DNA of 64,000 bases from Synechococcus sp. RS9909 (GTDB taxonomy: Bacteria > Cyanobacteriota > Cyanobacteriia > PCC-6307 > Cyanobiaceae). The notes under the pieces were generated by a model. That model saw only the letters and a program-made list of their open reading frames with translations. It searched no databases and had not been told where the DNA came from. The stretch spans positions 310,001 through 374,000 of the forward strand of contig NZ_CP047943.1 in NCBI RefSeq assembly GCF_014279595.1, read 5' to 3'. Below are positions 14,724-45,336 of this stretch, one piece after another; the stretch's first letter is position 1; each line of letters starts with the position of its first letter. Both the position numbers and the translations under genes were made by a program.

Positions 14724-14788
14724 TCACCAAAACCCTTTCCAGGACAAGGCTTTTCAAGGATTCTCCCTCCCTCGCACTCCGCTCCGTT

Positions 14789-29141: not shown

Positions 29142-29954
29142 ATGCCTGCCCGCCGTTCAAAACCCAAGCCCCCAAAGGCCCAAAACGCCAAAGGCGACCT
29201 GACGGCCCAGGGCTTCCGGGTGGCCGACAGCGGCCCCCACACCAGCAAGACGCTGATGCTCCAGGAACTGGAGACCCTTCTGGCGGCGGTCCCGGATGAC
29301 GCTCCGGCCAAGGCCTACCGAGCAGCAATCGTGGAGGAGAACGTGCTGGGCAAGCGCACCCTCTCCACGCGCAAGGAAACCGCCTCCCGGCTGACGGCCC
29401 TGCACGCCCTTGACCCCACCAAGCCCCTGTTTCGGGTGCTGCGCCGGCTCTGGGACGTGGAACCCGCTGCCCGGCCCCAGCTGGCACTGCTCAATGGCCT
29501 GGCCCGCGACCCGCTGCTGATGGCAACCAGAGAGCAGGTGATGGGGATGGCCGCGGGCCAACAGGTCCAGCGCTCCGAGATGGTGGCGGCGGTACAGGGT
29601 TTCACCCACGACCGCCTCAGCGCCAAGGTGCTCGATGCGGTAGCCCGCAACACCGCCAGCAGCTGGACCCAGAGCGGCCACCTCAAGGGCAAGGTCAAAA
29701 AGCTGCGCCAGCCCCTCCAGCCTCACCCCGTCGCCCTCGCTCTGGCGATGTGGCTGGGCTACGCCAGCGGCAAACGCGGCAAGGCGCTGCTCAACACCCC
29801 CTGGGCCAGGGCGCTCGACACTTCAAACTCAGGGCTGCTGGAACTGGCGGAGCAGGCCAAACGCCTCGGACTACTCAAGCTCTCGCATGGAGCTGGGGTG
29901 GTGTCGATCGATCCCAGTGGCTTGGATCCACTCCACGGAGGCCAGCAGTCATGA
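29142..29954 (+). CDS. brxA: BrxA-like BREX protein (DUF1819-type, by position)
   Basis: 270 residues from ATG 29142, chosen because the codons upstream show no conserved character. It is basic, mostly helical: an extended N-tail (RSKPKPPKAQNAKGDL), then TSKTLMLQELETLLAAVP, RKETASRLTALHALDP and LFRVLRRLWDVEPAARPQLALLNGLARDPLLMATR. This pattern of helices followed by a small winged end agrees with BrxA, a DNA-binding BREX component. The family assignment leans on position immediately before brxB; it is longer than the roughly 200-residue E. coli protein. Its stop overlaps the brxB start (ATGA). Confidence 0.7.
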   Translation: MPARRSKPKPPKAQNAKGDLTAQGFRVADSGPHTSKTLMLQELETLLAAVPDDAPAKAYRAAIVEENVLGKRTLSTRKETASRLTALHALDPTKPLFRVLRRLWDVEPAARPQLALLNGLARDPLLMATREQVMGMAAGQQVQRSEMVAAVQGFTHDRLSAKVLDAVARNTASSWTQSGHLKGKVKKLRQPLQPHPVALALAMWLGYASGKRGKALLNTPWARALDTSNSGLLELAEQAKRLGLLKLSHGAGVVSIDPSGLDPLHGGQQS

Positions 29955-30508
29955 GCCGGATCGATGAACTGGCGGCGCAGTACGCAGACCACATCACCGT
30001 GCCCTGGCAGCAGGGCCTACCCGCTGCCAACCGGGTGGTGATGCTCGTTTACGAGAAGGAGCTGGAGCGGCACCTGCGGGCCAAGCTGCTCGAGTTCGAG
30101 CAGGCCACCAAGACCGCCGGGCATGGCTGGCAGTTGGTCGACCTCACCACCGCCTTCGCGGAGTGGATGGGGGCAATGAAGTACCGCGACGAGTACTTCG
30201 AGCGGCCCGATGACATCCGCCTCAAGCTCGATTCCAGCTTCCTGCGCCACGTGGCGGACCTGATCAAAGCCCAGCTCAGCCAGGCGAGTGAGAACGACGT
30301 GGTGGCGCTACTCGGGGCCGGGAGCCTGTTTGGCTTCCTGCGGCTCTCGGATGTGATCAAAGAAGTGGAACGCGAGATCCAGGGCCGTCTGGTCGTGTTC
30401 TTCCCCGGTCAGAAAGACGGCAACAACTACCGGCTGCTCGATGCCCGAGACGGCTGGAACTACATGGCGGTGGGCATCTCCCGTCATCACACAGGAGCGG
30501 TGGCATGA
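29951..30508 (+). CDS. brxB: BrxB (DUF1788) BREX protein
   Basis: 185 residues. The opening RIDELAAQYADHITVPWQQGLPAANRVVMLVYEKELERHLRAKLLEFEQATKTAGHGWQLVDLT and the end IQGRLVVFFPGQKDGNNYRLLDARDGWNYMAVGI are typical of DUF1788/BrxB. BrxB is essential for BREX in several systems and associates with PglZ and BrxC, but its activity is not defined. Four-base ATGA overlaps on both sides couple it to brxA and brxC. Confidence 0.88.
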   Translation: MSRIDELAAQYADHITVPWQQGLPAANRVVMLVYEKELERHLRAKLLEFEQATKTAGHGWQLVDLTTAFAEWMGAMKYRDEYFERPDDIRLKLDSSFLRHVADLIKAQLSQASENDVVALLGAGSLFGFLRLSDVIKEVEREIQGRLVVFFPGQKDGNNYRLLDARDGWNYMAVGISRHHTGAVA

Positions 30509-33500
30509 GCCAAAAAATCTTTGAGACCCTGCAGCGCGACCCGCGCTCCAGCCCGCTGGCCAACAACGGCCAGGCACGCATCACCACACTCGACGACGAC
30601 AACTCCCGCATCGAGCTGGAAGGTGAGCTGACCACCTTCGTCTGCGACGGCCAGTACGGCCAGGCGATGGAGCGGATCCTGCAGAGCTACCTGGCGCAGC
30701 AGGGCCAGGCCCGCCAGAACTGTGCCTGGGTATCGGGGTTCTTCGGGAGCGGTAAGTCGCACCTGCAGAAGATGCTCGGCCACCTCTGGGCCAACACCGA
30801 GGTGAGCTCGGGCAAGCGAGCTCGCGATCTGGTTCTGGAACTCCCAGATGGCGTGAGGGACCAGTTCCGCGAGCTCGACACGCTCGCCGCAAGAAGTGGC
30901 AAGCCGCTGATGGCGGCCAGTGGCGCCATGCCCTCCGGAGCCAAGGACGCGGTGCGCAAGACCGTGCTGGCGATCCTGCTCAAAGCGGTGGGCATGCCCG
31001 AGAAGGTGCCCCAGGCACGCTTCTGTTTCTGGCTGCGGGAGAAGGGCTACCTCGATGCCGTTAAATCCACCGTCGAGGCAGATGGAACTCTTTGGCTGGA
31101 AGAGCTTGATGAGCTCTACGTCAGCCCGTTGATCGCTGGGGCTGTGCTGGAGCAAGACCCCGACTTCGCTGCTGGCAATCGGGAAGCCCGCGATGTGATC
31201 CGCCAGCAGTTCCCCAACAGCGACGGCGACATCACCACCGCCGAATTCGTGCAGCTGGCCCGTAAGGCCTTGTCGCCCGATGGCGGCGAGCTGCCCCACA
31301 CGATGCTCGTGCTCGATGAGGTGCAGCAGTACATCGGCGACTCCAACGACCGTGCCACCGACTTCGTGGAACTGGCCGAGGCACTGCAGACCGAACTCGA
31401 TAGCCGCGTGATGTTGGTTGCCTCCGGGCAGTCGGCGCTGTCGTCGGAAACGCCACAGCTGCAGAAGCTCAAAGACCGCTTCCGCGTCACGGTGCAGCTC
31501 TCAGACACCGACGTGGAAACGGTGATCCGCAAGGTGATCCTGCAGAAGCGGGCCGATGCCCAGGCCGATGTGCAGCAGGTGCTGGAGACCAATGCCGGCG
31601 AGGTGTCCAAGCAGCTGGAAGGCAGCCTGATCAAGGAGCGCTCGGAGGACCGCCAGGTGGCCGTTGCCGACTACCCGCTGCTGCCCACCCGCCGCCGCTT
31701 CTGGGAGGAATGCTTCCGCAGCGTCGATGTGGCCGGCACCAACAGCCAGCTGCGCTCCCAGCTGCGCATCATTTTTGACGCGGTCAAAGACATCGCCGAG
31801 GAAGACCTGGGCCGGGTGATCACCGGCGATGTGTTGTTCCAAGCGATGGGGCCCGACCTGGTGAACTCGGGTGTGCTGCTCAACGAGCTCAACAACCGCA
31901 TCTCCGGGCTGGATGACGGCAGCGAGGAGGGCAAACTCAAGCAGAGCCTCTGCGGCTTGGCCTTCCTGATCAGCCGGCTGCCGCGGGAGCAGGGGGCCGA
32001 CAAGGGCATCCGAGCCACGGCCCGCACCCTGGGCGATCTAATGGTGCCCGACCTGCGCAAGGACAGCGGCCCGCTGCGCAATCAGATCGCCGGCCTGCTG
32101 GAGGCGATGGCAGAAGACGGCACCTTGATGAAGGTGGGTGAGCAGCCGGGGCTGGAGGAATACCGCCTCCAGACCACTGAGGGTGCCCAGTGGCAGCGCT
32201 TGTTTGACGAGAAGCGCCAGGCGGTCCGCAGTGACACCAACGAGGTGAACACGTTCCGTGAGCAGCTCCTGGGGGCTGAACTGCAGAAGGAACTCAAGGC
32301 TGTGCGCCTCCTACATGGCGACGCCAAGATTTCCCGTTCGATCGTTCCATGGGTCAATCCTGAGCCCCCTGCGCCATCGAATGAGCAGGTGGTGGTGTGG
32401 GTACGCGACGGCTGGGGCTGCAGTGAGAAGGAGGTGCGAGAAGCAGCTCGCGAGGCCGGAACCGATGACCCCGTGCTCCACGTGTTCCTGCCACGCCGCA
32501 ATGCGGAGGAACTCAGGAGCCGGATCATCGACGCCACGGCGGCCAGGCGGGTGCTTGGTCACTACAACCCGACAACACCAGAGGGCAAAGAAGCACGGCA
32601 GGCGATGCAGAGCCGCCTGAGCCGGGCAGAGGAAGACTGCAACGAGCTGATCGCTGATGTGATCGCCAATGCGCTGGTGCTCAAGGGCGGCGGCATCGAG
32701 GAGTACGGCACCAAGCTGGGCGAAAAATTGCAGGCGGCAGCGAACGAGTCATCGCTCGCCAGGCTGTTCCCGGAGTTCCCCAAAGCCGATCACGGCAGCT
32801 GGGGCACAGCCGTCAAGCGCGCCAAGGAGGGCAGCGACTCGCCGCTGGGCGTCGTCGGCCACCAGGGCAGCAACGACAGTCACCCAGTGGCTCGCCAGGT
32901 GATTAATTCCATTGGTGGCGGAAAGGAGGGAACCAACATCCGCGTCGAGCTACGCATCGCCCCGTTCGGCTGGCCGCAGGATGCGATCGATGCGGTGCTG
33001 CTGGCGTTGCATCGCGATGGCACCCTCAGCGCCAAAGACAGCCAGAACAACCCGATCGCAGTCGGCCAGCTCGATCAGCAGAGCCTGGGCAAGGCTCGCT
33101 TTTACCTGCAGGAGGTGCGCCTCACCACCCGCGAAAAGCTGGCGGTACGTGGCGTCTTTGGCATCGCCAGCGTCAGCGCCAATCAGGGGCAAGAGGAAGC
33201 CAAGGCAGTCGAGTTCCTCGATGCCATCGAGAACCAGGTGGCGCAATCCGGGGGTGAGCCGCCCCTGCCGCAACCGGTCAGCGCTGGCCTGATTAAGCAA
33301 CTGCGCAGCCTCAGCGGCGCGGAGCAGCTCAAGGCGATCCTGGATGCCAAGGAGCAGTTGCAGGAGCTGTGGGATCAAGCCTGCAGCCTGGTGGACCGCA
33401 AGCAGAAGCGTTGGCCCAGTTGGGAGAGCCTGACTGGTCTGCTTCATCAAGCCCAAGGTCTTGAGATCCATGGGGAGCTGGCCCCCCAGGTGGAAGCGAT

Positions 33501-33990
33501 CCGTTCCCATCGCTCATTGCTCGACCCCACCACCGACTTTGTGGCCCCGCTGCTGCAGCAACTGGAGCAGGCGCTGGCCGTTGAACTGGAGCAGGCCCAG
33601 CAACAGTTCAGCCAGGTGGTGGCAGCTGAGCTGCAACAGCTGCAAGCCAGTGCCGAATGGCAGGGCCTGCCGGAAGCGGAGCGCGACCGCATCAGCCAGA
33701 GCCTGCAGTTACCGGCCACGGCTCCGGCGGCTGAGCCTGTTGAGCGGAGCCAGTTGCTGGAAGCGCTCCAGCAACGTTCCATCACTGGACGCAAAGAGCA
33801 GGCCGAGAGCGTGCCCACGCGTTTTGCCAAGGCCCGCACGGCAGCGGCCAAGGCACTGGAGCCCTCCACCCAGGCCCTCAGGCTCAATAGCGGGGTGATC
33901 AAAGACGCAGCAGCACTCGATGCCTGGTGGGCGGCTGAGCGTCAGAAGCTCGCTACCGCTCTCGAAAACGGTCCGATCCAGATCAACTGA
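30505..33990 (+). CDS. brxC: BrxC, BREX P-loop ATPase
   Basis: 1161 residues, normal for type 1 BREX BrxC (about 1200). Walker A is GFFGSGKS at residues 78-85; Walker B MLVLDE at 267-272 is followed by VQQYIGDSNDRATDFVELAEAL. An arginine-rich AAA+ part (RRRFWEECFRSVDVAG) and a long helical C-terminal half rich in Gln/Glu (about 900-1110) follow. BrxC is an AAA+ NTPase required for both host methylation and phage exclusion. It starts within the brxB stop (ATGA) and ends 5 bp before the first pglX. Confidence 0.93.
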   Translation: MSQKIFETLQRDPRSSPLANNGQARITTLDDDNSRIELEGELTTFVCDGQYGQAMERILQSYLAQQGQARQNCAWVSGFFGSGKSHLQKMLGHLWANTEVSSGKRARDLVLELPDGVRDQFRELDTLAARSGKPLMAASGAMPSGAKDAVRKTVLAILLKAVGMPEKVPQARFCFWLREKGYLDAVKSTVEADGTLWLEELDELYVSPLIAGAVLEQDPDFAAGNREARDVIRQQFPNSDGDITTAEFVQLARKALSPDGGELPHTMLVLDEVQQYIGDSNDRATDFVELAEALQTELDSRVMLVASGQSALSSETPQLQKLKDRFRVTVQLSDTDVETVIRKVILQKRADAQADVQQVLETNAGEVSKQLEGSLIKERSEDRQVAVADYPLLPTRRRFWEECFRSVDVAGTNSQLRSQLRIIFDAVKDIAEEDLGRVITGDVLFQAMGPDLVNSGVLLNELNNRISGLDDGSEEGKLKQSLCGLAFLISRLPREQGADKGIRATARTLGDLMVPDLRKDSGPLRNQIAGLLEAMAEDGTLMKVGEQPGLEEYRLQTTEGAQWQRLFDEKRQAVRSDTNEVNTFREQLLGAELQKELKAVRLLHGDAKISRSIVPWVNPEPPAPSNEQVVVWVRDGWGCSEKEVREAAREAGTDDPVLHVFLPRRNAEELRSRIIDATAARRVLGHYNPTTPEGKEARQAMQSRLSRAEEDCNELIADVIANALVLKGGGIEEYGTKLGEKLQAAANESSLARLFPEFPKADHGSWGTAVKRAKEGSDSPLGVVGHQGSNDSHPVARQVINSIGGGKEGTNIRVELRIAPFGWPQDAIDAVLLALHRDGTLSAKDSQNNPIAVGQLDQQSLGKARFYLQEVRLTTREKLAVRGVFGIASVSANQGQEEAKAVEFLDAIENQVAQSGGEPPLPQPVSAGLIKQLRSLSGAEQLKAILDAKEQLQELWDQACSLVDRKQKRWPSWESLTGLLHQAQGLEIHGELAPQVEAIRSHRSLLDPTTDFVAPLLQQLEQALAVELEQAQQQFSQVVAAELQQLQASAEWQGLPEAERDRISQSLQLPATAPAAEPVERSQLLEALQQRSITGRKEQAESVPTRFAKARTAAAKALEPSTQALRLNSGVIKDAAALDAWWAAERQKLATALENGPIQIN

Positions 33991-33995
33991 TCCCC

Positions 33996-36900
33996 ATGCC
34001 CACTCTCGCCTCCGATCTGCGCAAGACCCTGGAAAACACCGTGGTGAAGGCCAGGGATCTGGCCGAGCGCGGTGCACGCGATGCCCTCACGGCCCTGGCG
34101 GTGGGAGCCAGCGAGCCGTTCTCGTCGATGAGCGATGAGGAACGCAAACTTCGCAACCGCCTGCGCGCCCGCGGCCGCCAGCTGGGGGATCAGCGCGATC
34201 CCCAGAAAGGCACGCAAAGCATTGAGCGGCTGGTGCGGGAGATGGCCTACGAGCACTGGCACCGCATGCTGTTTGCTCGCTTCCTGGCCGAAAACCAGCT
34301 GCTCATCGAGCCCACGTCCGGGGTTGCGATCAGCCTTGATGAATGCGAAGAACTGGCAGCAGAGGAAGGAATAGATCTTTGGGAGTTGGCTGCGCAATTT
34401 GCTCAGGAGATGCTGCCGCAGATCTTCCGGGTTGATGATCCGGTGCTGGCAGCCAAGTTGCCACTGGAGATCCGCCAACTGCTGCAGGGGTTGGTGGCCG
34501 GCCTAGAGGTGGAGGTGTTCACCGCCAGCGACAGCCTTGGGTGGACCTACCAGTTCTGGCAGACGAAGCGCAAAAAAGAGGTCAATGACTCCGGCGTCAA
34601 GATCGGCGCCGATGAGCTGTCCCCGGTGACACAGCTGTTCACCGAGGACTACATGGTGGACTTCCTGCTGGACAACACCCTCGGTGCCTGGCACGCCGGC
34701 AAAGTGTTTGCGGCTAATCCCCAGCTGGCTGCCTCAGCCGAGAGCGAGGATGAACTCCGCAAGGCCGTATCTCTACCTGGCTGCCCGTGGGCCTATCTGC
34801 GTTTTATTCAGACAAAAGAAGGTGCCTGGACTCCTGCTGCTGGCATCTTTGAGGGCTGGCCGAAAACAGCGGCAGAGCTGAAGTGCCTCGACCCCTGCAT
34901 GGGGAGTGGACATTTTGTTGTCGCGATGTTTGAGCGTCTGGTGGCTCTTCGTATAGCGGAAGAGGGGCTTGCTGAAAAGGCAGCATTGGCGACGGTCATC
35001 GAGGACAACCTGTTCGGATTGGAGATCGACACGCGCTGCACGCAGATTGCCGCGTTCAACCTGGCGCTGGCCGCGTGGCGGCGAGTGGGACACTGCAAGC
35101 TGCCCGCCATGAACCTGGCTTGCTCAGGCTTGGCGCCCAATAGCAGTGAGTCCGCTTGGCTGGCCTTGGCTGGCGATAACGAGCGACTCAGGAATGGAAT
35201 GGAGAGGCTTTACAGGCTGTTCCAAAAGGCTGCGGTGCTGGGCAGCCTGATCAACCCGCGCGCTGCTGAGGGCGATCTGCTGGTAGCCGCGTTCCATGAA
35301 CTCCAGCCGCTGCTGGAACAGGCACTGGTGCAGGAGGTCCATGACTACTCCACACTTGAAATGGCCGTGGCTGCGCGCGGCCTAGCCAAGGCGGCTGAGA
35401 TTCTTGCAGGCCAATTCACGCTCGTCGCCACCAATGTTCCTTACCTCGGACGACGCAAACAGGACGAAGTACTCAAAAACTACTGCGGGCGCTTTCACCC
35501 CGATGCAAAGACAGAACTCGCAACATGCTTCATTGAACGTTCCTTGGCCTTCTGCGCCAGCAGTGGCTCTGCCGCTCTTCTTGTTCCGCAGAATTGGCTC
35601 TTTCTTGGGACATTTCAAGCACTCAGAGAAAAGCTACTCAGGAGCGCCAACTGGGATTTCGCCTGCCGGATGGGCTCAAAGGCATTTCAGACACCCATGT
35701 ACGACTTTGGGGTGGTCATGCATTCTTTCACGAAAAGGCTTCCCCAAATATCTTCGAGCCTCGTTGGCCTAGATGTGGGCTCTGAATTATCACCTGAGAG
35801 CAAATTGGAGGTTTTGCCAGATTGCTCAATCTCCGTTGTCAACCAGCTTGGACAGCTCAGCAATCCTGATACAGCGATTGTTTTTGAAGAAGCCTCTAAA
35901 TTACCTCTCCTTCAAAACTACGCCGATTCCCTGCAAGGCTGTGGTCTGGCGGACATCGTGATCTTCAGAAAGTTGTTTTGGGAGATTAAGGCGCTCACAA
36001 ACGGATGGGTTGCACATCAAAGCTCACCAGATGGGGTCGGGCTCTACACCGGGTTGCACTTTGCTGTGAAATGGGACGATGGAAAGGGCGCTCTTGCCAA
36101 TACGCCTGAAGCCACGATTCGGGGACGCTCCGCTTGGGGTAAGAATGGGATTGCTTGTGCATGGCTGGGTCGTCTGCCCGCCGGACTTTATATTGGTACA
36201 CTTTATGACAATAGTGCGGCTGCAATAATTCCAAAGAATCCAGCCCATCTCGGTGCAATTTGGTGCTTTATTTCATCCCCTGAATTTGCGCGAGAGGTTC
36301 GAAAGATTAATCAGAAAGCTCAAGTCGCCAATGCCACGTTGGTCAAAGTTCCATTTGACCTCGCGCTCTGGCAGAAGGTGGCGGCGGAGAAATATCCGGA
36401 AGGACTACCCAAGCCGTTCTCCAGCGACGCTACCCAATGGCTATTCAACGGCCACCCTGCTGGTGCAGACCAGCCATTGCATGTGGCAGTGGCGCGACTT
36501 GTTGGTTACCTTTGGCCGCGCCAGACAGGCTCAAGTTTCCCCGATTGCCCCGCCCTCGGACCCGATGGCCTGGAATCCATGGCCGATGAAGATGGCATCG
36601 TCTGCCTCGCGCCCGTTCGAGGCGAAGCCTCCGCCGTTGAGCGTCTGCGCAAGCTGCTCGCCGCTGCATTTGGAGATGAGTGGTCTGCGGCCAAAGAACG
36701 CGAACTGCTGTTGGCAACAGCCGTGGATAACAACGCCAAAAATGCTGACCCGGATCTATGCACTTGGCTGCGCAATTCCTTCTTCAGCGAGCACTGCAAG
36801 CTGTTCCTCAGTCGGCCCTTCATCTGGCAGATCTGGGATGGGCACCCACAAGGCTTTAGCGCCCTGGTCAATTACCACAAGCTCGCCGCTCCTAATGGTG

Positions 36901-37454
36901 AGGGCCGCAAAGCCCTTGAGCTGCTTACCTTCACCTATCTAGGTGATTGGATCGATCGCCAGAAGCTAGATCAGGTAGAAGGTGTCAATGGCGCGGATGA
37001 TCGCCTTGCTGCAGCGCTTGATCTGCAAGGCCAGCTCAAGAAGATCCTCGAAGGAGAACCGCCCTACGACATTTTTGTGCGCTGGAAGCCTCTGCAGCAG
37101 CAACCAATCGGCTGGGAGCCCGACATCAACGATGGCGTACGCCTCCACATCCGCCCGTTCCTGAATGCCCAGCTACGCAAGGGTGGTAAAGCCGGTGCTG
37201 GAATACTCCGCGCCAAGCCCGGCAGCATCAAGTGGACCAAGGACCGCGGTAAGGAGCCGATGCGGTCCAAAGAGGAGTTTCCCTGGTTCTGGGGGATGGA
37301 TGAAGACAACCATGCCACGGTCATGGATTTCGGAGCTCCGATTCCTGGTGCACCGCCTGTAGGCGAAAGCTTCGATGGCAACCGCTGGAACGACCTGCAC
37401 TACTCCCGTGCGGCCAAGGAAGAAGCCCGGATAAAGCAGCAAGGAAGGAACTGA
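33996..37454 (+). CDS. pglX: PglX adenine-specific DNA methyltransferase, first copy
   Basis: 1152 residues. Catalytic motifs of class I N6-adenine methyltransferases: motif I DPCMGSGHF at residues 299-307 (SAM binding) and motif IV NVPY at 480-483 (N-x-P-Y form of the NPPY site). The N-terminal 260 residues and the C-terminal 400 are very similar to the second copy; residues about 500-740 are not, and the DNA there is richer in AT. That central part corresponds to the target recognition region. PglX marks host DNA at a non-palindromic site and sets the specificity of BREX. It begins 5 bp after brxC and ends 2 bp before the second pglX. Confidence 0.93.
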   Translation: MPTLASDLRKTLENTVVKARDLAERGARDALTALAVGASEPFSSMSDEERKLRNRLRARGRQLGDQRDPQKGTQSIERLVREMAYEHWHRMLFARFLAENQLLIEPTSGVAISLDECEELAAEEGIDLWELAAQFAQEMLPQIFRVDDPVLAAKLPLEIRQLLQGLVAGLEVEVFTASDSLGWTYQFWQTKRKKEVNDSGVKIGADELSPVTQLFTEDYMVDFLLDNTLGAWHAGKVFAANPQLAASAESEDELRKAVSLPGCPWAYLRFIQTKEGAWTPAAGIFEGWPKTAAELKCLDPCMGSGHFVVAMFERLVALRIAEEGLAEKAALATVIEDNLFGLEIDTRCTQIAAFNLALAAWRRVGHCKLPAMNLACSGLAPNSSESAWLALAGDNERLRNGMERLYRLFQKAAVLGSLINPRAAEGDLLVAAFHELQPLLEQALVQEVHDYSTLEMAVAARGLAKAAEILAGQFTLVATNVPYLGRRKQDEVLKNYCGRFHPDAKTELATCFIERSLAFCASSGSAALLVPQNWLFLGTFQALREKLLRSANWDFACRMGSKAFQTPMYDFGVVMHSFTKRLPQISSSLVGLDVGSELSPESKLEVLPDCSISVVNQLGQLSNPDTAIVFEEASKLPLLQNYADSLQGCGLADIVIFRKLFWEIKALTNGWVAHQSSPDGVGLYTGLHFAVKWDDGKGALANTPEATIRGRSAWGKNGIACAWLGRLPAGLYIGTLYDNSAAAIIPKNPAHLGAIWCFISSPEFAREVRKINQKAQVANATLVKVPFDLALWQKVAAEKYPEGLPKPFSSDATQWLFNGHPAGADQPLHVAVARLVGYLWPRQTGSSFPDCPALGPDGLESMADEDGIVCLAPVRGEASAVERLRKLLAAAFGDEWSAAKERELLLATAVDNNAKNADPDLCTWLRNSFFSEHCKLFLSRPFIWQIWDGHPQGFSALVNYHKLAAPNGEGRKALELLTFTYLGDWIDRQKLDQVEGVNGADDRLAAALDLQGQLKKILEGEPPYDIFVRWKPLQQQPIGWEPDINDGVRLHIRPFLNAQLRKGGKAGAGILRAKPGSIKWTKDRGKEPMRSKEEFPWFWGMDEDNHATVMDFGAPIPGAPPVGESFDGNRWNDLHYSRAAKEEARIKQQGRN
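34092..34162 (+). repeat. 71-bp perfect repeat between the pglX copies, block A (copy 1)
   Basis: Identical over 71 bp to 37553-37623 in the second pglX, beginning GCCCTGGCGGTGGG and ending CGCAACCGCCT. Surrounding sequence differs at synonymous sites, so the perfect block stands out as a probable gene-conversion or crossover tract. Confidence 0.8.
34632..34702 (+). repeat. 71-bp perfect repeat between the pglX copies, block B (copy 1)
   Basis: Identical over 71 bp to 38093-38163, beginning CAGCTGTTCACCGAGG and ending GCACGCCGGCAA. It lies upstream of methyltransferase motif I, so exchange here and in the shared C-terminal region could swap the recognition region between copies. Confidence 0.8.
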
Positions 37455-37456
37455 CC

Positions 37457-40400
37457 ATGCCCGCTCTCGCTTCCGATCTGCGCAAGGCCCTCGAAGCCAC
37501 AGTGGTTGATGCACGCGACAAGGCCGAGCGAGGCGCTCGTGATGCCCTCACCGCCCTGGCGGTGGGAGCCAGCGAGCCGTTCTCGTCGATGAGCGATGAG
37601 GAACGCAAACTTCGCAACCGCCTTCGCGCCCGCGGCCGCCAGCTCGGCGATCAACGCGACGCCCAGAAGGGCACGCAGAGCATCGAGCGGCTGGTACGCG
37701 AGATGGCCTATGAGCACTGGCACCGCATGTTGTTTGCCCGCTTTCTGGCGGAGAACCAGCTACTGATCGAACCCAGCTCAGGGGTGTCAATCACGCTCAA
37801 TGAATGCGAAGAACTAGCTGCAGAAGAGGGAACCGATCTCTGGGGAATGGCTGCGCAATTCGCGCAAGGGATGTTGCCGCAGATCTTTCGCACGGACGAT
37901 CCGGTGTTGGCGTTGAGCTTGCCCCTGGAGATCCGCCAACAACTGCAGGCTCTGGTGGCGGGGTTGGATGCCGAGGTGTTCACCGCCAGCGACAGCCTGG
38001 GTTGGACCTACCAGTTCTGGCAGACAAAGCGCAAAAAAGAGGTCAACGACTCCGGCGTGAAGATCGGCGCCGATGAACTCTCCCCGGTCACGCAGCTGTT
38101 CACCGAGGACTACATGGTGGACTTCCTGCTGGACAACACCCTCGGTGCCTGGCACGCCGGCAAGATACTTGCCGCCAATCCTGAGCTAGCCAGCAAGGCC
38201 CAAACCGAGGACGAACTGCGCCAGGCAGTAGCTCTTCCCGGTTGCCCCTGGAATTACCTGCGGCTTATCAAGTCAGACGATGGTGTGTGGGCACCGGCGG
38301 CTGGAACCTTTGAAGGTTGGCCCAGAGCTGCAGCAGATCTGAAGTGCCTGGATCCCTGTATGGGTAGCGGGCACTTCGTTGTCGCGATGTTCGAGCGGCT
38401 GGTGGCATTGCGCCTGGCCGAAGGCGATCAGATGGAAGCGGCGGCTATGGCGGCTGTGATCAAGAGCAATCTTTTCGGCTTGGAGATCGACCCGCGCTGT
38501 ACACAGATAGCCGCATTCAACCTGGCTCTGGCTGCATGGCGCCGCGTTGGCCATTGCAAGTTGCCTGCGATGAACCTGGCCTGCTCTGGCCTGGCGCCGA
38601 ACACAAGAAAAGCAGACTGGATTGCGATAGCTGGTAACAACGAGCGGCTCACCAATGGGATGGAGCGGCTTTATTGGCTGTTCCAGAAAGCTTCTGTGCT
38701 GGGCAGCTTGATCAACCCACGCGCTGCTGAGGGCGATTTGCTTGTGGCCGATTTCCATGAACTGCAGCCGTTGTTGGAACAGGCGCTGGCGCAGGAGAGC
38801 CAAGACGACAACGCGCATGAAATTGCCGTGACTGCGCGGGGCTTAACCAAGGCGGCGGAGATGCTTGCAGGCCACTTCACACTTGTAGCAACAAATGTGC
38901 CATACCTCGGTCGAGGCAAGCATTCTGAGGCGATCAAAGAATACTGCGATCGAGCTCACCCGGAAGCGAAGGCAGACCTAGCAACCTGCTTCGCTGAAAG
39001 GTGTCTTCATCTGTGCTCAATTGGGGGATGCAGTGCGCTCGTAACACCCCAAAACTGGTGGTTCTCTGGAACTTACTCCAAGTTCCGCGCTTCCATACTT
39101 CAGGAATTTAGTTTTAGTTGTGTCGCCGCTCTTGGAGAGGAAGCCTGGCAAAGCTTTGGCGACAGAGGGCCAGCGGCCGCCTTGATGGTCGTTCAAAAAC
39201 GGAAACCTGATAACGACCAAGAAATAATCGGAATAAATGCGTTACCCAGGAAGACAATATCCGAAAAGGCTCGAGAAATGGCAAGTGGCGAGTTCTGCTG
39301 CCTGAGCCAGCGCGATCAGCAAAAAAATCCCGACCATCGAATCACGATTGAAAAAATAATCGATGGCGTACTTTTGCAGAACTATGCCGAATCCCCGAAT
39401 GGCTCTCACGGAGGAGACGCCTTCAGGCATCGCAGAGCTTTCTGGGAGTTCCCCTGGATAAATGAAAACTGGCGCTTTTTTCAAGGAACCGTAGACAAGA
39501 CTCAATACTACGGCGGCCGCGAATCCGTCTTCTCCTGGTTCGCAGATGGCAGAGAGCACAAGGAAAATCCCAGCGCTTACATCAAGGGAGAGCACGTAGC
39601 AGGAAAGATGGGTGTTGCCATAAGCATGATGCGCGAGCTTCCGACAACCCTTTACTCTGGCGAGCTCTTCGACATAAGTTGCACTCCCATTGTCCCTAAG
39701 TCGCCAGGCGACTTGACTGCAATCTGGGCCTTTTGCTCTTCGCCCGAATACTGTACCGCGGTCAGAAAAATTGACCAGAAGGTCAAAGTAACCAATGCAA
39801 CGCTGACAAAAATCCCCTTCGATTTAGCACACTGGCAGAGAGTTGCCGCCGAGAAATATCCCCAGGGACTGCCGAAGCCGTTTTCAAGCGATTCCACGCA
39901 ATGGCTTTTTGACGGCAACCCGGCTGGTGCAAGCCAGCCATTGCATGTAGTAATTCCTCGGCTTGTTGGTTACCAGTGGCCGCGCCAGACCGGTTCCAGT
40001 TTTCCCGATTGCCCAGCCCTCGCCTCTGATGGCCTAGAAGCATTGGCAGATGGCGATGGCATCGTATGCCTATCGCCTATCCGCGGAGAAGCAGCTGCTG
40101 CTGATCGACTACGCGGCCTGTTAGCCGCAGCCTTCGGTGATGAGTGGAGCAATTCGAAAGAACGTGAGCTGCTACTAGAAACCGCCGTGGCCAATGACAC
40201 CAAGAAAGCCGCTGCCGACTTAAGTGAGTGGCTGCGTCAGAGCTTCTTTACTGAGCACTGCAAGCTCTTTCAATCGAGGCCTTTTGTCTGGCAAATCTGG
40301 GATGGCAATCCCCACGGATTCAGTGCCTTGGTGAACTACCACAAACTTGCTGCGCCCAACGGCCAAGGCCGCAAAACTCTGGAGCTGCTCGCCTACACCT

Positions 40401-40918
40401 ATCTGGGCGACTGGATCGATCGCCAGAAGCTAGATCAAGCAGAAGGTGTCAATGGTGCGGATGATCGTCTGGCTGCAGCTCTCGATCTGCAGGGGCAACT
40501 TAAGAAGATCCTCGAAGGTGAGCCGCCCTACGACATCTTTGTACGTTGGAAGCCACTGCATCAACAATCAATCGGTTGGGATCCCGACATCAACGACGGG
40601 GTACGCCTCAACATCCGCCCCTTCCTCAATGCCCAGCTGCGCAAAGGGGGCAAAGCCGGGGCCGGCATTCTTCGCGCCAAGCCCGGCACCATCAAGTGGA
40701 AAAAAGATCGCGGCAAGGAGCCAATACGCTCCAAAGACGACTTCCCATGGTTCTGGGGTTGGGACGAGAACAACACATCCCTGGCCATCGACTATGGAGC
40801 TCCGATCTCTGAAGCTCCCGCTGCAGGCGACAGCTTTGATGGCAACCGCTGGAATGACTTGCACTACACCCGAGCTGCCAAGGAAGCCGCCAGGGCTCGG
40901 CACCGAGGAGAGGCTTAA
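37457..40918 (+). CDS. pglX: PglX adenine-specific DNA methyltransferase, second copy
   Basis: 1153 residues, a tandem paralogue of the preceding gene. Motif I DPCMGSGHF and motif IV NVPY fall at the same residue numbers (299-307 and 480-483), so both copies should be catalytically competent. Between about residues 500 and 740 the sequence diverges, for example TPQNWWFSGTYSKFRASIL against VPQNWLFLGTFQALREKLL, then largely unrelated stretches, before returning to near identity at PFSSD-TQWLF. A second methylation specificity is the simplest reading. PglZ starts 3 bp after its TAA. Confidence 0.93.
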   Translation: MPALASDLRKALEATVVDARDKAERGARDALTALAVGASEPFSSMSDEERKLRNRLRARGRQLGDQRDAQKGTQSIERLVREMAYEHWHRMLFARFLAENQLLIEPSSGVSITLNECEELAAEEGTDLWGMAAQFAQGMLPQIFRTDDPVLALSLPLEIRQQLQALVAGLDAEVFTASDSLGWTYQFWQTKRKKEVNDSGVKIGADELSPVTQLFTEDYMVDFLLDNTLGAWHAGKILAANPELASKAQTEDELRQAVALPGCPWNYLRLIKSDDGVWAPAAGTFEGWPRAAADLKCLDPCMGSGHFVVAMFERLVALRLAEGDQMEAAAMAAVIKSNLFGLEIDPRCTQIAAFNLALAAWRRVGHCKLPAMNLACSGLAPNTRKADWIAIAGNNERLTNGMERLYWLFQKASVLGSLINPRAAEGDLLVADFHELQPLLEQALAQESQDDNAHEIAVTARGLTKAAEMLAGHFTLVATNVPYLGRGKHSEAIKEYCDRAHPEAKADLATCFAERCLHLCSIGGCSALVTPQNWWFSGTYSKFRASILQEFSFSCVAALGEEAWQSFGDRGPAAALMVVQKRKPDNDQEIIGINALPRKTISEKAREMASGEFCCLSQRDQQKNPDHRITIEKIIDGVLLQNYAESPNGSHGGDAFRHRRAFWEFPWINENWRFFQGTVDKTQYYGGRESVFSWFADGREHKENPSAYIKGEHVAGKMGVAISMMRELPTTLYSGELFDISCTPIVPKSPGDLTAIWAFCSSPEYCTAVRKIDQKVKVTNATLTKIPFDLAHWQRVAAEKYPQGLPKPFSSDSTQWLFDGNPAGASQPLHVVIPRLVGYQWPRQTGSSFPDCPALASDGLEALADGDGIVCLSPIRGEAAAADRLRGLLAAAFGDEWSNSKERELLLETAVANDTKKAAADLSEWLRQSFFTEHCKLFQSRPFVWQIWDGNPHGFSALVNYHKLAAPNGQGRKTLELLAYTYLGDWIDRQKLDQAEGVNGADDRLAAALDLQGQLKKILEGEPPYDIFVRWKPLHQQSIGWDPDINDGVRLNIRPFLNAQLRKGGKAGAGILRAKPGTIKWKKDRGKEPIRSKDDFPWFWGWDENNTSLAIDYGAPISEAPAAGDSFDGNRWNDLHYTRAAKEAARARHRGEA
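37553..37623 (+). repeat. 71-bp perfect repeat between the pglX copies, block A (copy 2)
   Basis: Second copy of the identical 71-bp block at 34092-34162, offset by 3461 bp. Unequal crossover between the two would delete or duplicate one complete pglX reading frame. Confidence 0.8.
38093..38163 (+). repeat. 71-bp perfect repeat between the pglX copies, block B (copy 2)
   Basis: Second copy of the block at 34632-34702, again offset by 3461 bp, showing the two genes are collinear with no net indel before this point. Confidence 0.8.
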
Positions 40919-40921
40919 AGC

Positions 40922-43264
40922 ATGGCACCACAGTCCCTGCTGGATGCACTAATTCAGAAACTGCATGGCTGCAACGTCAGCGGAGATGCAGAGGAGGCAC
41001 CAGTTGCTGTCATCTGGACCGATCCCCGCAGCGAGTGGAAACCACTGATACCTCTGTTGCGGCAGCAGCTTCCTGAACTGCTCTGCCTGGGCGACTACGC
41101 CCCAGAACAGCAGCAAGGCCCATCGCTATGGCTGCGCTGGGTCGTTGATCGCAGCCTTCCTTCTGAAGTTGACGCCGCCAAGCAAATCCCAGTGATCTAT
41201 CTGCCGGGGATCAGCCGGCAGGAATTGCGGGCTGGTGAAGGTTGCCCCTGGGAGTTGGAGCCACTGATCGAGCTGATGTTCCGCGGCACCCCATGGCTGC
41301 AACGCAATGGGCGCGATTGGACCCTTGCTGCTTTCCTCGGCTCTGCCGATGCGCTGAATCTCGACCTCGCCGCTGATCAGAACACCAAGGCAGCCCTCAG
41401 CCGAGCCCTCACCGAACTGGCCACCGTGCCCTTAGATCAGCTGCGCGGCAAGCGTTTGGAAGCAGAAGACTTCGACGCCTTGCTGGCCGACGACCCAACC
41501 CGAGACCTGCTGCAGTGGATGGCGGATCCCCAGCCGTTCCAATTGCGTTGCGGTGAGGAGCGCTGGAGCGCACTCACCTCCATCTGGAAGAAAGAGCTCA
41601 AGTTCGATCCCGCCAAAGATGGCGAGCTCTCTGCCGCTGAACGGCTGGCCAAGGGGCATGGCAACTGGGCCAAGGTTTGGCAACGCTTTGCCGACACGCC
41701 TGCAGCGTTTCCGGGCCTCCCAGATCTGCTGAGGAGGGCTGCCCCTGCCGACATCCAGGGTGATCTTCTTGGCAGCAAAAACGATCTATCGCGCTGGCCG
41801 ACCCATAACGAGGCTCGCGAGCTCGAAGTGCTCGAAGCACTCAAATCCCTGCCTGGCAAATCCCACCCCGACGCCTGCCGTTGCGTTCGCGAGCTGGAGG
41901 CCCAGCACAGCGAGCGGCGCAGCTGGATCTGGGCCCGGCTGGGCCTGTCACCGCTGGCACTGGTGCTCGAACCGCTCGGCCGCCTGGCCCAGCGAGCGGA
42001 TCAAACACTGGTGGGGTCCACGCCGGAAGAGTTCATCGCGCCCTACACAGCCGATGGCTGGGAGGCCGATCTCTCCGCCTGGCAGGCGATGGCCATGGCC
42101 CAGACCGCCCAGGAGGAGCTGGTGCGCAAGGGGGTGGCGGCCCTGCTGCGCCCCTGGCTGGATGACACCGCCAGCCGCTTCCAGAAAGCTGTGGCAAGTA
42201 GTGGCCTGCCGACCCCAGCAGAGCAAGGCGCCATCACCGCCGAACCAGGCGAAGTGCTGTTGTTTGCCGATGGCCTCCGCTACGACGTAGCCCGCCAACT
42301 GCAGAAAGAGCTGGAGGTGATGGCGATCACCGGCAGCCTCAACACCCGTTGGGCGGGGCTGCCCACGGTCACCGCCACAGCCAAACCCGCCATCACGCCC
42401 CTCATCGGTGACATCCAGGGCCAGGCTCTTCCAGACGATTTCGCTCCAGCCTTCCGCTCCGGCAAGCCCACCAGTGCCGCCGAGCTTCGCAAGGCCCTCA
42501 CCGCCCAGGGCTACACCGTCCTGGGCGATGGGGAGCTGAACATTCCGTCCAGCCCGGAAGCGCGTGGCTGGCTGGAGATCGGCGACCTCGATCACCGCGG
42601 CCACCAGCTGCAGAACGATCTGCCCCAGGTGATCCACGCCGAAATCGATCGGCTGGCGCTTCGGATCCAGAAGCTGCTCGATGTCGGTTGGCGCTCCGTG
42701 AAGGTCGTCACCGACCACGGCTGGCTGTTCTGCCCTGATGGTCTGCCCACAGCTGAGTTGCCCAAGCACCTCACCGCCAGCAAGTGGGCCCGTTGCGCCG
42801 CCATCAAGGGCGAGTCCCAAGTTCCGGTGCCCACCGCCGCCTGGAGCTGGAACCCAAGCGAGCAGTTCGCCACACCCACTGGCGCCGCCTGCTTCAACAC
42901 AGGGGGCACTAACGCCTATGCCCACGGCGGCATCAGCCTGCAGGAGTGCCTCACGCCTGTGCTCGTCGTCTCCGGTGGGGAGAACAAAGCACCAGCTGCG
43001 ACCATCACCGAGGTCAGCTGGAAGGGTTTGCGCTGCAACCTTGAGGTCAACGGTGCCACCACTGATCTGAAGGCTGACCTGCGCCGCGACACAGCCAATG
43101 GCCCTTCAGTGGCCACCACCGCCAAACCCATCGACGATGGTGCTGCCCGTTTGCTGGTCGAGGATGACGAGTTGGAAGGAGCTGTGGTGATGGCCGTGTT
43201 GATCAGCCCTGAAGGGCGCGTGATCGCCCAGCGCCGCACCCTGGTTGGAGGAGAGTCCGAATGA
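40922..43264 (+). CDS. pglZ: PglZ, BREX alkaline-phosphatase-superfamily protein
   Basis: 780 residues. The PglZ core (alkaline phosphatase superfamily metal sites) is visible as VLLFADGLRYDVARQL with D450, and KVVTDHGWLFCP with D598 and H599; ITPLIGDIQGQALP and RGHQLQNDL lie between. The shorter length and this sequence suggest the form called type B in BREX-1 systems, though I could not compare it. PglZ is needed for restriction and often for methylation; its substrate is unknown. It lies between pglX and brxL with 3-bp spacing and a 4-bp overlap. Confidence 0.9.
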   Translation: MAPQSLLDALIQKLHGCNVSGDAEEAPVAVIWTDPRSEWKPLIPLLRQQLPELLCLGDYAPEQQQGPSLWLRWVVDRSLPSEVDAAKQIPVIYLPGISRQELRAGEGCPWELEPLIELMFRGTPWLQRNGRDWTLAAFLGSADALNLDLAADQNTKAALSRALTELATVPLDQLRGKRLEAEDFDALLADDPTRDLLQWMADPQPFQLRCGEERWSALTSIWKKELKFDPAKDGELSAAERLAKGHGNWAKVWQRFADTPAAFPGLPDLLRRAAPADIQGDLLGSKNDLSRWPTHNEARELEVLEALKSLPGKSHPDACRCVRELEAQHSERRSWIWARLGLSPLALVLEPLGRLAQRADQTLVGSTPEEFIAPYTADGWEADLSAWQAMAMAQTAQEELVRKGVAALLRPWLDDTASRFQKAVASSGLPTPAEQGAITAEPGEVLLFADGLRYDVARQLQKELEVMAITGSLNTRWAGLPTVTATAKPAITPLIGDIQGQALPDDFAPAFRSGKPTSAAELRKALTAQGYTVLGDGELNIPSSPEARGWLEIGDLDHRGHQLQNDLPQVIHAEIDRLALRIQKLLDVGWRSVKVVTDHGWLFCPDGLPTAELPKHLTASKWARCAAIKGESQVPVPTAAWSWNPSEQFATPTGAACFNTGGTNAYAHGGISLQECLTPVLVVSGGENKAPAATITEVSWKGLRCNLEVNGATTDLKADLRRDTANGPSVATTAKPIDDGAARLLVEDDELEGAVVMAVLISPEGRVIAQRRTLVGGESE

Positions 43265-45336
43265 GCCCCGCCGACATCGCCACCACCAGCGAGATGGACC
43301 AGCTCGACCAGCTCGGCGCCAAGGCCTTTGATGGCTTCCTGGTCCGCAAGGACCTGGTGCGCAAGTACTCCCGCCAGTACCCGGTGCCCACCTACGTGGT
43401 GGAGTTCCTCCTCGGCCGCTACTGCGCCAGCACCGATCCGGCCGAAATCGAAGAAGGGCTGCAGATCGTGGAAAAGCAGCTCCAGGGCCGAACGGTGCGC
43501 ACCGGCGAGGAGGAGCTGTTCAAAGCCAGGGCCCGGGATCAGGGCAGCGTCAAGATCATCGACATCGTGCGAGCTCGACTCGACACCCGCAGCGACTCCT
43601 ACATGGCTGAGGTGCCCAGCCTCGCCATCCGCGATGCCCAGATCGACGACGAGCTGGTGCGCGCCAACGAGCGCATGCTCACCGATGGCTTTTACGCCGA
43701 GGTGTCGCTCGAATACGACCCGGTGATCGCTCAGGAGCGCAACGGCCGGCCCTTCCGCATCGCCGGGCTGCGTCCGATTCAGATGTCCAACCCCAACGTG
43801 CTGGGGATCCTGGCCAAGGGCCGGGCAGCGTTCACCACCGATGAGTGGCGCGATTTCCTGATCCGCTCCATCGGCCTGGAACCGAGTGCCCTCGATGAGC
43901 GGGCCAAGATGGTGGTGTTGCTGCGCATGGCTCCCTTCGTGGAGCGCAACTTCAACCTGGTAGAGCTGGGCCCGCGCGGTACGGGCAAGAGCCACCTGTT
44001 CCAGCAGATCTCCCCCTACTCCCACCTGATATCGGGCGGCAAAGCCACCGTCGCCAAGATGTTCGTCAACAACAGCAATGGCCAGCGCGGCCTCGTCTGC
44101 CAGTACGACGTGGTCTGCTTCGACGAGGTGGGTGGGGTGTCCTTCGATCAGAAGGACGGCGTCAACATCCTTAAGGGCTACATGGCCTCCGGCGAGTTCA
44201 GCCGCGGCAAGGAGAGCATCCGCGCTGAAGGCGGCGTGGTGATGGTCGGCAACTTCGATGTCGATGTGGAGCAGCAGCAGCGCATCGGCCACCTGCTAAG
44301 TCCCTTGCCGCGTGAGATGCGTGACGACACGGCCTTCCAGGACCGCATCCACGCCTACGCACCCGGCTGGGATTTCCCCAAGCTCAACCCCAACGAGCAC
44401 CTCACCAGCCACTTCGGCCTGGTCAGCGATTTCCTCAGCGAGTGCTGGAGCCGCCTGCGCGATGGCAGCCGCCTGGCGGCAATGCAGAACCGCATCCACC
44501 TGGGCGGTGCCCTCAGTGGCCGCGACATCGAGGGCGTCAACAAAACGGTCAGCGCCCTGATCAAGCTGCTGTTCCCCGATCCCGAGATGGAGATCCCCGA
44601 CGAGGATCTCGAATGGATCGTGCGCCTGGCGCTCGAATCACGCCGCCGGGTGAAGGAGCAGCAGAAGCGCTGCCTCAAGAGCGAGTTCCGCAACACCCAC
44701 TTCAGCTACACCCTCGGCCTCGACGGGGTGGAGAAGTTCGTGGCTACGCCCGAGCTCCACAGCGACGACGCCATTGATGGCGATCCCCTGCCGCCCGGCC
44801 AGGTCTGGGCGATCAGTCCCGGCACGGGTGAAACCGGCCCCAGCCTCTACCGGATCGAAGTGGCCGTAGGCCCGGGCAGCGGCGTCAAGATCCTGAATCA
44901 GCCCGTACCGCCGGCCTTCCGCGAGAGCACCAAGGTGGGCGAGCAGAACCTCTATTCCCGCGCCAAGGGCCTGGTGGGCGACCGTGATCCTCGCGGCCAC
45001 GAGTTTTCCATGCAAATGCGCGCGATGGACAACGACCGCAGCGGCGCTGGCCTCGGCCTTCCGGTGATGGTTGCCCTGGTCGGTGGCCTGCTTGACCGCA
45101 ACACCCGCGGCAGCACCATCGTTGTGGGTTCACTGAACCTGGGCGGCTCCGTCGAGATGATCCCCAACGCCGTCGCCATTGCCGAACTGGCCGTGGAGAA
45201 GCAAGCCAAGGTGTTGCTGATGCCCGTTTCAGCTCGCCGCGGGCTGAACGACCTACCCGATGACCTCTGGACCAAGATCTCGATTGAGTTCTACAAGGAT
45301 CCGGAGGATGCGGTGTTTAAGGGGTTGGAGGAGTAA
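43261..45336 (+). CDS. brxL: BrxL, BREX Lon-like AAA+ protein
   Basis: 691 residues. Walker A GPRGTGKS at 237-244 with FQQISPYSHLISGGKATVAKMF after it, and Walker B DVVCFDEVGG. The C-terminal Lon-like domain has NDRSGAGLGLPVMVALVGGLLDR at about 591 onward and NLGGSVEMIPNAVAIAELAVE at about 626. Aligned to Lon, the catalytic Ser position is Gly597 and the Lys position is Val631, so proteolysis is not expected. BrxL is the phage restriction factor of type 1 BREX and forms DNA-binding barrels. It ends the operon; the brxL type defines this as BREX type 1. Confidence 0.93.
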   Translation: MSPADIATTSEMDQLDQLGAKAFDGFLVRKDLVRKYSRQYPVPTYVVEFLLGRYCASTDPAEIEEGLQIVEKQLQGRTVRTGEEELFKARARDQGSVKIIDIVRARLDTRSDSYMAEVPSLAIRDAQIDDELVRANERMLTDGFYAEVSLEYDPVIAQERNGRPFRIAGLRPIQMSNPNVLGILAKGRAAFTTDEWRDFLIRSIGLEPSALDERAKMVVLLRMAPFVERNFNLVELGPRGTGKSHLFQQISPYSHLISGGKATVAKMFVNNSNGQRGLVCQYDVVCFDEVGGVSFDQKDGVNILKGYMASGEFSRGKESIRAEGGVVMVGNFDVDVEQQQRIGHLLSPLPREMRDDTAFQDRIHAYAPGWDFPKLNPNEHLTSHFGLVSDFLSECWSRLRDGSRLAAMQNRIHLGGALSGRDIEGVNKTVSALIKLLFPDPEMEIPDEDLEWIVRLALESRRRVKEQQKRCLKSEFRNTHFSYTLGLDGVEKFVATPELHSDDAIDGDPLPPGQVWAISPGTGETGPSLYRIEVAVGPGSGVKILNQPVPPAFRESTKVGEQNLYSRAKGLVGDRDPRGHEFSMQMRAMDNDRSGAGLGLPVMVALVGGLLDRNTRGSTIVVGSLNLGGSVEMIPNAVAIAELAVEKQAKVLLMPVSARRGLNDLPDDLWTKISIEFYKDPEDAVFKGLEE

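What the first reader, a model, noticed from the sequence alone, without database searches (positions are those of the whole stretch)
33996..40918. Two tandem pglX genes with shared ends and different centres
Both copies (1152 and 1153 residues) keep motif I at residues 299-307 and NVPY at 480-483. Two 71-bp stretches are perfectly identical at a constant 3461-bp offset, yet residues about 500-740 diverge strongly and are AT-richer. This is what gene conversion plus selection for different target recognition would leave. The canonical type 1 locus has one pglX.
Basis: partly seen in the sequence, partly recalled or inferred. Interest (0 to 1): 0.7.

Follow-up and report, generated by a model that had tools for sequence, protein, structure and literature searches.

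The report
BREX operon with two specificity genes
A bacterial anti-phage operon that normally holds one DNA-reading methyltransferase holds two intact ones back to back, with very different DNA-reading centres, so the same machinery probably guards against phages at two DNA motifs instead of one.

Summary
In detail: two intact, co-directional pglX genes (1152 and 1153 aa) lie seamlessly between brxC and pglZ in a complete type 1 BREX operon. The divergent centre is the end of the methyltransferase fold plus an HsdS-like target recognition domain in both predicted models, so two specificities are likely. But "like ends, unlike AT-rich centre" separates single-copy pglX genes of this family too. 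A and B are no more alike than either is to pglX of other picocyanobacteria (flank synonymous codon identity 0.575, against 0.53-0.66 for the five closest relatives). An A+B clade is rejected for residues 1-500 (p-AU 0.0004), not for 791-1152 (p 0.165). B's recognition domain groups with a Verrucomicrobial pglX (100/98): it behaves as a module independent of the ends. Gene conversion explains at most short tracts such as the 71-bp runs. The operon sits on a 58.5-kb tRNA-Met island that also carries phage genes. pglX duplications have been mentioned before (PMC11842806). Methylation of two motifs is untested.

The parts
29076..29954 (+). brxA (292-aa ORF)
   Evidence: PADLOC BrxA 1.4e-83
29750..30508 (+). 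brxB; the ORF as listed overlaps brxA, the real start is probably near 29950
   Evidence: PADLOC BrxB 1.7e-71 over residues 68-246
30505..33990 (+). brxC, 1161 aa
   Evidence: PADLOC BrxC 1259 bits; NCBIfam BREX_BrxC 670 bits, cut-off 400
33996..37454 (+). pglX-A (brxX-A), 1152 aa
   Evidence: PADLOC PglX 1490 bits; model matches E. coli and Salmonella BrxX, VIA Z about 20
37457..40918 (+). pglX-B (brxX-B), 1153 aa; two bases lie between the stop of pglX-A and its ATG
   Evidence: PADLOC PglX 1483 bits; model matches BrxX, VIA Z about 22
34092..34162 (+). first 71-bp run, identical to 37553-37623
34632..34702 (+). second 71-bp run, identical to 38093-38163
34890..34916 (+). pglX-A motif I DPCMGSGHF (residues 299-307)
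35433..35444 (+). pglX-A motif IV NVPY (480-483); NVPY or NVPF in 75 of 76 family rows
35556..36275 (+). pglX-A divergent centre, residues about 521-760
35886..36410 (+). pglX-A target recognition domain, residues about 631-805, HsdS-like in the model
   Evidence: 1yf2 Z 10.0, 2y7c Z 9.4
38351..38377 (+). pglX-B motif I
38894..38905 (+). pglX-B motif IV NVPY
39350..39874 (+). pglX-B target recognition domain, about residues 632-806 (placed by alignment to A; the model matches HsdS from residue 637)
   Evidence: 1yf2 Z 10.6
40922..43264 (+). pglZ
   Evidence: NCBIfam BREX_PglZ_1_B 811 bits, cut-off 400
43261..45336 (+). brxL, overlaps the pglZ stop
   Evidence: PADLOC BrxL 952 bits; TIGR02688 442 bits, cut-off 329
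27872..28930 (+). neighbour: Mrr-type endonuclease (PADLOC candidate PDC-S02)
26816..27691 (+). neighbour: BRO-N protein (PADLOC candidate PDC-S13)
14682..14724 (+). left attachment repeat in tRNA-Met (14651-14723); the same 43 bp lie at genome position 383188, 58.5 kb away

Best explanation
This is a type 1 BREX operon (the branch with type-B PglZ) with two complete PglX/BrxX subunits. Shown: both genes are intact, follow each other with two bases between them, keep every residue that is invariant in 68 aligned relatives, and have the BrxX fold in predicted models. Shown: their ends differ with dN/dS near 0.1, while their centres, which include the target recognition domain, are only 27% identical. 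Inferred: each PglX joins the common BrxB/BrxC/PglZ complex, methylates its own short non-palindromic motif in the host, and triggers exclusion of phages that carry that motif unmethylated, so one set of parts serves two specificities. Inferred origin: the second copy was recruited, or long retained, from a pool of picocyanobacterial pglX alleles whose recognition domains behave as modules; it is not a recent duplicate kept alike by gene conversion.
For: Complete brxA-brxL set. Both copies full length, with all invariant columns of alignment A1, which contains both. Flank dN 0.115, dS 1.01. Both models match E. coli BrxX and Salmonella PglX over about residues 5-1082 (best Z 20.6 for A, 21.8 for B) and the centre matches HsdS recognition domains. 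PglX sets specificity in Salmonella BREX and changes in the E. coli TRD change the site (PMC11341690 abstract and passages; PMC11842806 passages). On the printed profile alignment, counted by hand, the residues at the places of E. coli BrxX K681, D684 and N823 are Q, G, Q in A and N, H, K in B (columns). Recognition-domain tree: B with Verrucomicrobial L027 at 100/98, A far away. The domain groups across phyla elsewhere too, e.g. L023/L033 81% in the centre against 63% in the ends. An independent tandem pair in Botrimarina, also between brxC and pglZ, shows the same pattern (91, 62, 50, 28, 31, 38, 67, 82% by region).
Against: No methylation or expression data. The residue mapping in the recognition domain rests on 16-20% identity and one profile alignment; the place of E. 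coli G785 is Ser in both copies, so the motifs could overlap. In L. paracasei Zhang only one of two BREX methyltransferases gives 6mA and the other is called regulatory (PMC10164179 passage). No sigma-70-like promoter was found on the operon strand over 28900-46500, so co-expression is inferred from spacing. Both PglX fall below NCBIfam's cut-off for BREX-1 PglX (276 and 306 of 500). Tandem pairs are rare: one complete pair (L047) in the 80 loci, so how well such pairs persist is not established.
Confidence: 0.74

Rival explanations
1. Gene conversion keeps the ends of two duplicate genes alike while selection diversifies the centres.
For: Two exact 71-bp runs, beyond a synonymous shuffle (p 0.002). 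In 4 of 41 windows of 25 codons (26-50, 176-200, 451-475, 626-650) A-B synonymous identity exceeds every value of A or B with seven relatives, about 2.7 being expected if all pairs were alike; the clearest is 26-50, 0.83 against at most 0.67 (the expectation is my estimate).
Against: Whole-flank synonymous identity and dS equal those between genomes; A+B clade rejected for residues 1-500; the same ends/centre profile separates single-copy genes; exact runs of 72-81 bp also join pglX genes of other contigs.
Confidence: 0.08
2. A recent tandem duplication in this lineage whose copies diverged fast in the centre.
For: Seamless head-to-tail arrangement and similar lengths. For residues 791-1152 an A+B clade is not rejected (p-AU 0.165).
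Against: Flank dS about 1; B's first 500 residues group with L003 and L034 at 99/96; B's centre is 59% identical to a Verrucomicrobial pglX and 27% to A.
Confidence: 0.05
3. Only one copy methylates and the other is a regulatory, weak or silent reserve, or both read the same motif.
For: Precedent in L. paracasei Zhang (PMC10164179 passage); no expression data here; the place of E. coli G785 is Ser in both.
Against: Both copies keep motif I, motif IV and all invariant columns, and the ends are under purifying selection; no strong inverted repeats and no invertase among the operon genes; three other recognition residues differ.
Confidence: 0.2

Closest known systems
Type 1 BREX with PglX/BrxX of Salmonella D23580 and E. 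coli (PMC11341690, PMC11842806; passages seen)
   Same: Same gene set brxA-B-C-pglX-pglZ-brxL; same fold; PglX carries both the methyltransferase and the recognition domain
   Different: One pglX there, two here; NVPY instead of NPPY in motif IV; 16-20% identical in structure alignments; PglZ of type B
BREX clusters with duplicated or phase-variable pglX (mentioned in PMC11842806; Goldfarb 2015 itself not held, recalled) and L. paracasei Zhang (PMC10164179, passages)
   Same: More than one pglX-type gene in one BREX cluster
   Different: Here both copies are full length, co-directional and in one operon, without strong inverted repeats or an invertase among the operon genes
BREX type 1 of the Antarctic picocyanobacterium Ca. 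Regnicoccus frigidus (PMC9716671, passages)
   Same: Type 1 BREX in a picocyanobacterium; some MAGs have two pglX pieces
   Different: There the two pieces are truncated and together make one gene; here both are complete
Type I restriction-modification systems with exchangeable HsdS recognition domains (recalled)
   Same: One catalytic set with exchangeable specificity; HsdS-like fold of the recognition domain
   Different: Here recognition and methylation are on one polypeptide and there is no HsdR/M/S set
Type IIL enzymes such as MmeI
   Same: N6-adenine methyltransferase fused to a recognition domain (5hr4, Z 10.4 for B)
   Different: MmeI also has a nuclease domain (PMC11341690 passage) and needs no BREX partners (recalled)

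Membership tests
Type 1 BREX | brxA, brxB, brxC, pglX, pglZ, brxL in one cluster | tested here: met
   PADLOC hits to all six; PglZ_1_B, BrxC and BrxL (TIGR02688) above NCBIfam cut-offs; no NCBIfam hit for brxA or brxB
Type 1 BREX | PglX above the NCBIfam BREX_1_MTaseX cut-off | tested here: not met
   276 and 306 bits against 500, though it is the best NCBIfam model. The copies belong to a separate PglX branch (PADLOC PDLC02528, 1490 and 1483 bits), so they are not members of that NCBIfam family
Type 1 BREX | a single pglX, as in the canonical six-gene locus | tested here: not met
   two full-length pglX
Type 1 BREX | 6mA at the fifth base of a non-palindromic 6-bp motif; phage exclusion | not testable with these tools
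   needs methylation calling and plaque assays
Phase-variable pglX cassettes | inverted copy or inverted repeats with an invertase beside pglX | tested here: not met
   both copies co-directional; only three weak inverted pairs (21-24 nt, 79-82% complementary) over 24000-47500; no invertase among the operon genes. Integrase genes exist elsewhere on the island
Type I restriction-modification | separate HsdR, HsdM, HsdS genes | tested here: not met
   the operon genes match BREX families best; the neighbour 26816-27691 has a weaker hit to a type I specificity model beside its better PDC-S13 hit
BrxX/PglX fold | NTD, methyltransferase, recognition domain and CTD as in 9ewz and 8c45 | tested here: met
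   to 9ewz Z 20.2, rmsd 6.7 over 950 residues (A) and Z 21.8, rmsd 8.2 over 940 (B); predicted models, pLDDT 85.5 and 84.8; residues after about 1082 not aligned

The most novel reading that the evidence does not exclude
PglX-A and PglX-B work as a pair in one BREX complex that reads two different motifs on the same DNA. Exclusion would be set off by an unmethylated copy of either motif, or only by the pair, and the second slot would be a standing docking place in which recognition modules from other lineages are tried without losing the resident specificity.
Probability: 0.12. Interest if true: 0.8.

Novelty: new member of a known kind. Interest (0 to 1): 0.45.

Why it matters
In BREX one protein sets both what is protected and what is attacked. 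A locus with two such proteins on one set of partners lets one ask directly whether the complex can serve two motifs at once, whether the subunits compete or combine, and how a new specificity is taken up without killing the cell. The family data also show recognition domains grouping across phyla independently of the rest of the protein, which predicts shared or related motifs (L023 with L033 most clearly; B with L027 less so, since they differ at two of the mapped recognition positions) that methylation calling can check.

Tried and rejected
Gene conversion as the main cause of the shared ends: rejected. AT-rich centre as a mark of foreign origin in this strain: rejected, 68 of 68 family members show it. 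NVPY as a sign of inactivity: rejected, NVPY or NVPF in 75 of 76 rows; the other, L054, is a broken frame of 86 aa. Phase variation: no support. Tandem pairs elsewhere in the window's own group: none seen in 31 genomes of the genus, 400 of the family (G163 has two copies on separate contigs) or 386 of the phylum at E 1e-60; many of these genomes are fragmentary and at most two candidates per genome were scored. Phylum of L027's genome: 11 of 387 genomes match at E 1e-60, none in tandem. Phages: 5 of 50,697 records match at E 1e-10, none over 80% of the query. Viral contigs: no stretch matched the peptide patterns. Plasmids: 7 of 72,556 records at E 1e-50, one place each. In the recognition-domain tree the tests that hold B with L003, and A with B, did not finish and were not repeated. 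No methylation motif was predicted: the mapping is too weak.

A point against my own lead: B and L027 share a recognition-domain clade, but at the places of E. coli G785 and N823 B has S and K, L027 has A and M, so an identical motif is doubtful.

Rows dropped: one search kept the best 80 of 141 relatives. Of 76 family rows, L001 and L002 (the window itself) and nine partial or broken rows (L012, L030, L036, L050, L054, L061, L067, L071, L081) were left out of alignments A1 and A2; A, B and L085 were added (the last four codons of L085 were cut by my coordinates); A1 holds 68 rows. L034 and L052 are partial and were left out of the C-terminal tree. The trees used 19 and 17 chosen rows. L003, L005 and L055 come from one MAG and may be strains of one population or one genome with several loci.
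Full report
Check of the observation. The operon around them is a full type 1 BREX set: brxA, brxB, brxC, pglX-A, pglX-B, pglZ, brxL. From brxB on, the genes follow one another within a few bases or overlap. PglZ is NCBIfam's type-B BREX-1 PglZ, 811 bits against a cut-off of 400; BrxC passes its cut-off and BrxL passes one of two. The two PglX score best against BREX-1 PglX but below its cut-off (276 and 306 of 500), so they belong to a separate branch; a PADLOC model matches both almost end to end (1490 and 1483 bits).

What the contrast between ends and centre means. I fetched the best 80 of 141 related loci from genome contigs and more from the window's family. By region (1-240, 241-500, 501-560, 561-740, 741-790, 791-970, 971-1152), A against B gives (aa identity / identity of synonymous codons) 90/68, 76/52, 43/28, 27/39, 60/34, 78/46, 81/60. 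A against the pglX of contig L005 gives 91/65, 78/52, 52/31, 26/29, 42/35, 85/57, 81/59, and B against L003 gives 91/67, 84/62, 55/29, 45/41, 48/22, 67/47, 89/61. So the profile that drew attention also separates genes that never shared an operon. Flank synonymous codon identity is 0.575 (CI 0.537-0.610) for A-B, 0.583 for A-L005, 0.609 for B-L003, 0.655 for B-L034 and 0.525 for B-L005. Flank dS is 1.01 for A-B and 0.93, 0.96, 1.05 and 1.25 for four pairs with other contigs. On residues 1-500 a careful tree of 19 proteins places B with L003 and L034 (99/96), leaves A unresolved among the picocyanobacterial copies and rejects A+B as one clade (p-AU 0.0004). On residues 791-1152 (17 proteins) these copies are unresolved and A+B is not rejected (p-AU 0.165). 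The 71-bp runs do exceed a shuffle of synonymous states (p 0.002), yet runs of 74 and 81 bp join pglX genes of different records, and one of 72 bp joins two contigs of one MAG. Short recombination tracts thus seem common in this gene, inside and outside the pair.

What the centre is. AlphaFold2 models of A and B (mean pLDDT 85.5 and 84.8) match E. coli BrxX and Salmonella PglX over about residues 5-1082 (9ewz: Z 20.2, rmsd 6.7 over 950 residues for A; Z 21.8, rmsd 8.2 over 940 for B). The large rmsd fits a hinged two-jawed protein, as BrxX is described (PMC11842806 passage). Residues from about 631 to 805 match HsdS recognition domains (1yf2: Z 10.0, rmsd 3.9 over 153 residues for A; Z 10.6, rmsd 5.5 over 157 for B). 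The divergence begins at about residue 521, so it also takes in the last part of the methyltransferase fold. Counting by hand on the printed profile alignment, the places of E. coli BrxX K681 and D684 (second base) and N823 (fourth base; PMC11842806 passages) hold Q, G, Q in A and N, H, K in B; the place of G785 is Ser in both. These columns vary across the 68 sequences.

The recognition domain behaves as a module. In the tree of residues 561-745 of 68 proteins, B is sister to L027, a Verrucomicrobiaceae MAG (100/98), with 59% identity over 561-740 against 27% to A and 45% to L003. B, L003 and L005 lie in one wider starred clade of 11 rows (99/94) that also holds other phyla. A falls among long branches with L053 and L066 (94/96), and L055, L021 and L085 lie elsewhere, each beside other phyla. 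L023 (Verrucomicrobiota) and L033 (Armatimonadota) are 81% identical in the centre and 63% in the ends. Exchange of the domain, or long retention of old alleles, would both give this; the data do not separate them. B and L027 differ at the places of G785 and N823 (S, K against A, M), so they need not read the same motif.

How rare is the pair. Of the 80 loci, 56 show pglX with a pglZ start downstream; the space between them is at most 400 bp in 17, 400-3000 bp in 29 and over 3000 bp in 10. One complete tandem pair was seen, in Botrimarina hoheduenensis (L047, L132), again between brxC and pglZ and again with like ends and unlike centres; a second (L056) is cut by a contig end. In two picocyanobacterial loci (L005, L131) the slot between pglX and pglZ holds the PADLOC candidate pair PDC-M28B/C, and in L003 it is empty. 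Here a pglX lies in that slot. None of 30 sister genomes of the genus has a match. In the family sample 7 of 400 genomes, the window's own included, have a close match (59% identity or more, my count from the rows); three of the seven are partial.

Mechanism. Shown: gene set, intactness, predicted fold, divergent recognition domains, purifying selection on the ends. From the literature: PglX is the specificity factor (PMC11341690, abstract and passages), and methylation and defence need a BrxB-BrxC-BrxX-PglZ complex (PMC11842806, passages). Inferred: the two PglX share these partners and give two motifs. The main doubt is whether both are active: in L. paracasei Zhang only one of two BREX methyltransferases gives 6mA (PMC10164179, passage).

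Setting. The operon lies on an island bounded by 43-bp direct repeats, one in tRNA-Met at window 14682-14724 and one at genome position 383188, 58.5 kb apart; a sister genome, G018, reads straight across the empty site at 95.5 and 96.1% identity. The island also encodes phage portal, major head, scaffolding, tail-fibre and terminase proteins, Rad52 and Gam-like proteins, a weak and a clear integrase match, and transposases. The head protein is 47% identical to that of cyanophage PSS2. It looks like a phage-derived island; I did not establish whether it can move, or whether BREX and the phage genes arrived together.

Novelty. I searched the paper library for duplicated, two, second, additional, tandem or phase-variable pglX. 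Among the listings and the passages that I opened I saw no description of two full-length co-directional pglX with different recognition domains; but PMC11842806 mentions earlier observed duplications and phase variation of pglX, citing work that I could not read. A review table lists seven validated type 1 systems with one PglX entry each (PMC12707154, passage). I file the locus as a new member of a known kind.

Noticed in passing
L046 1706-5749; L082 10001-14470; L121/L128 and L124/L127 (minus strand): pglX relatives from four genomes carry an in-frame insert of about 200-250 aa at nearly the same place (after residue about 272, before motif I) that looks like a REP-associated or IS200-type transposase (Pfam Y1_Tnp in L046); the inserts are 39-58% alike, and L046, L082 and L121 read through without a stop. 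A recurrent in-frame home for a transposase inside a BREX methyltransferase would be odd.
   Followed up: partly
window 14682-64000 and 9.2 kb beyond: 58.5-kb tRNA-Met island with phage packaging, capsid and tail-fibre genes, integrases, Rad52, an Mrr endonuclease, a BRO protein and the whole BREX operon; empty site in sister genome G018.
   Followed up: partly
L053 9709-10758 and 16253-17077; L130 10371-11126: Pieces matching only the PglX C-terminal domain: two downstream of a full pglX (L053), and a 252-aa frame alone in a picocyanobacterial genome (L130, 71% identical).
   Followed up: no
G733 (L060, L065, L133-L136): One deltaproteobacterial MAG holds pglX matches on five contigs; in four of the five no brx gene was seen in the stretch fetched.
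   Followed up: no
L023 10001-13372 and L033 2231-5605: pglX from two phyla with centres 81% identical but ends 63% identical; they should share a methylation motif.
   Followed up: no
L005 7525-10403; L131 10123-13016: The pglX-pglZ slot holds the PADLOC candidate pair PDC-M28B/C in two picocyanobacterial BREX loci.
   Followed up: no
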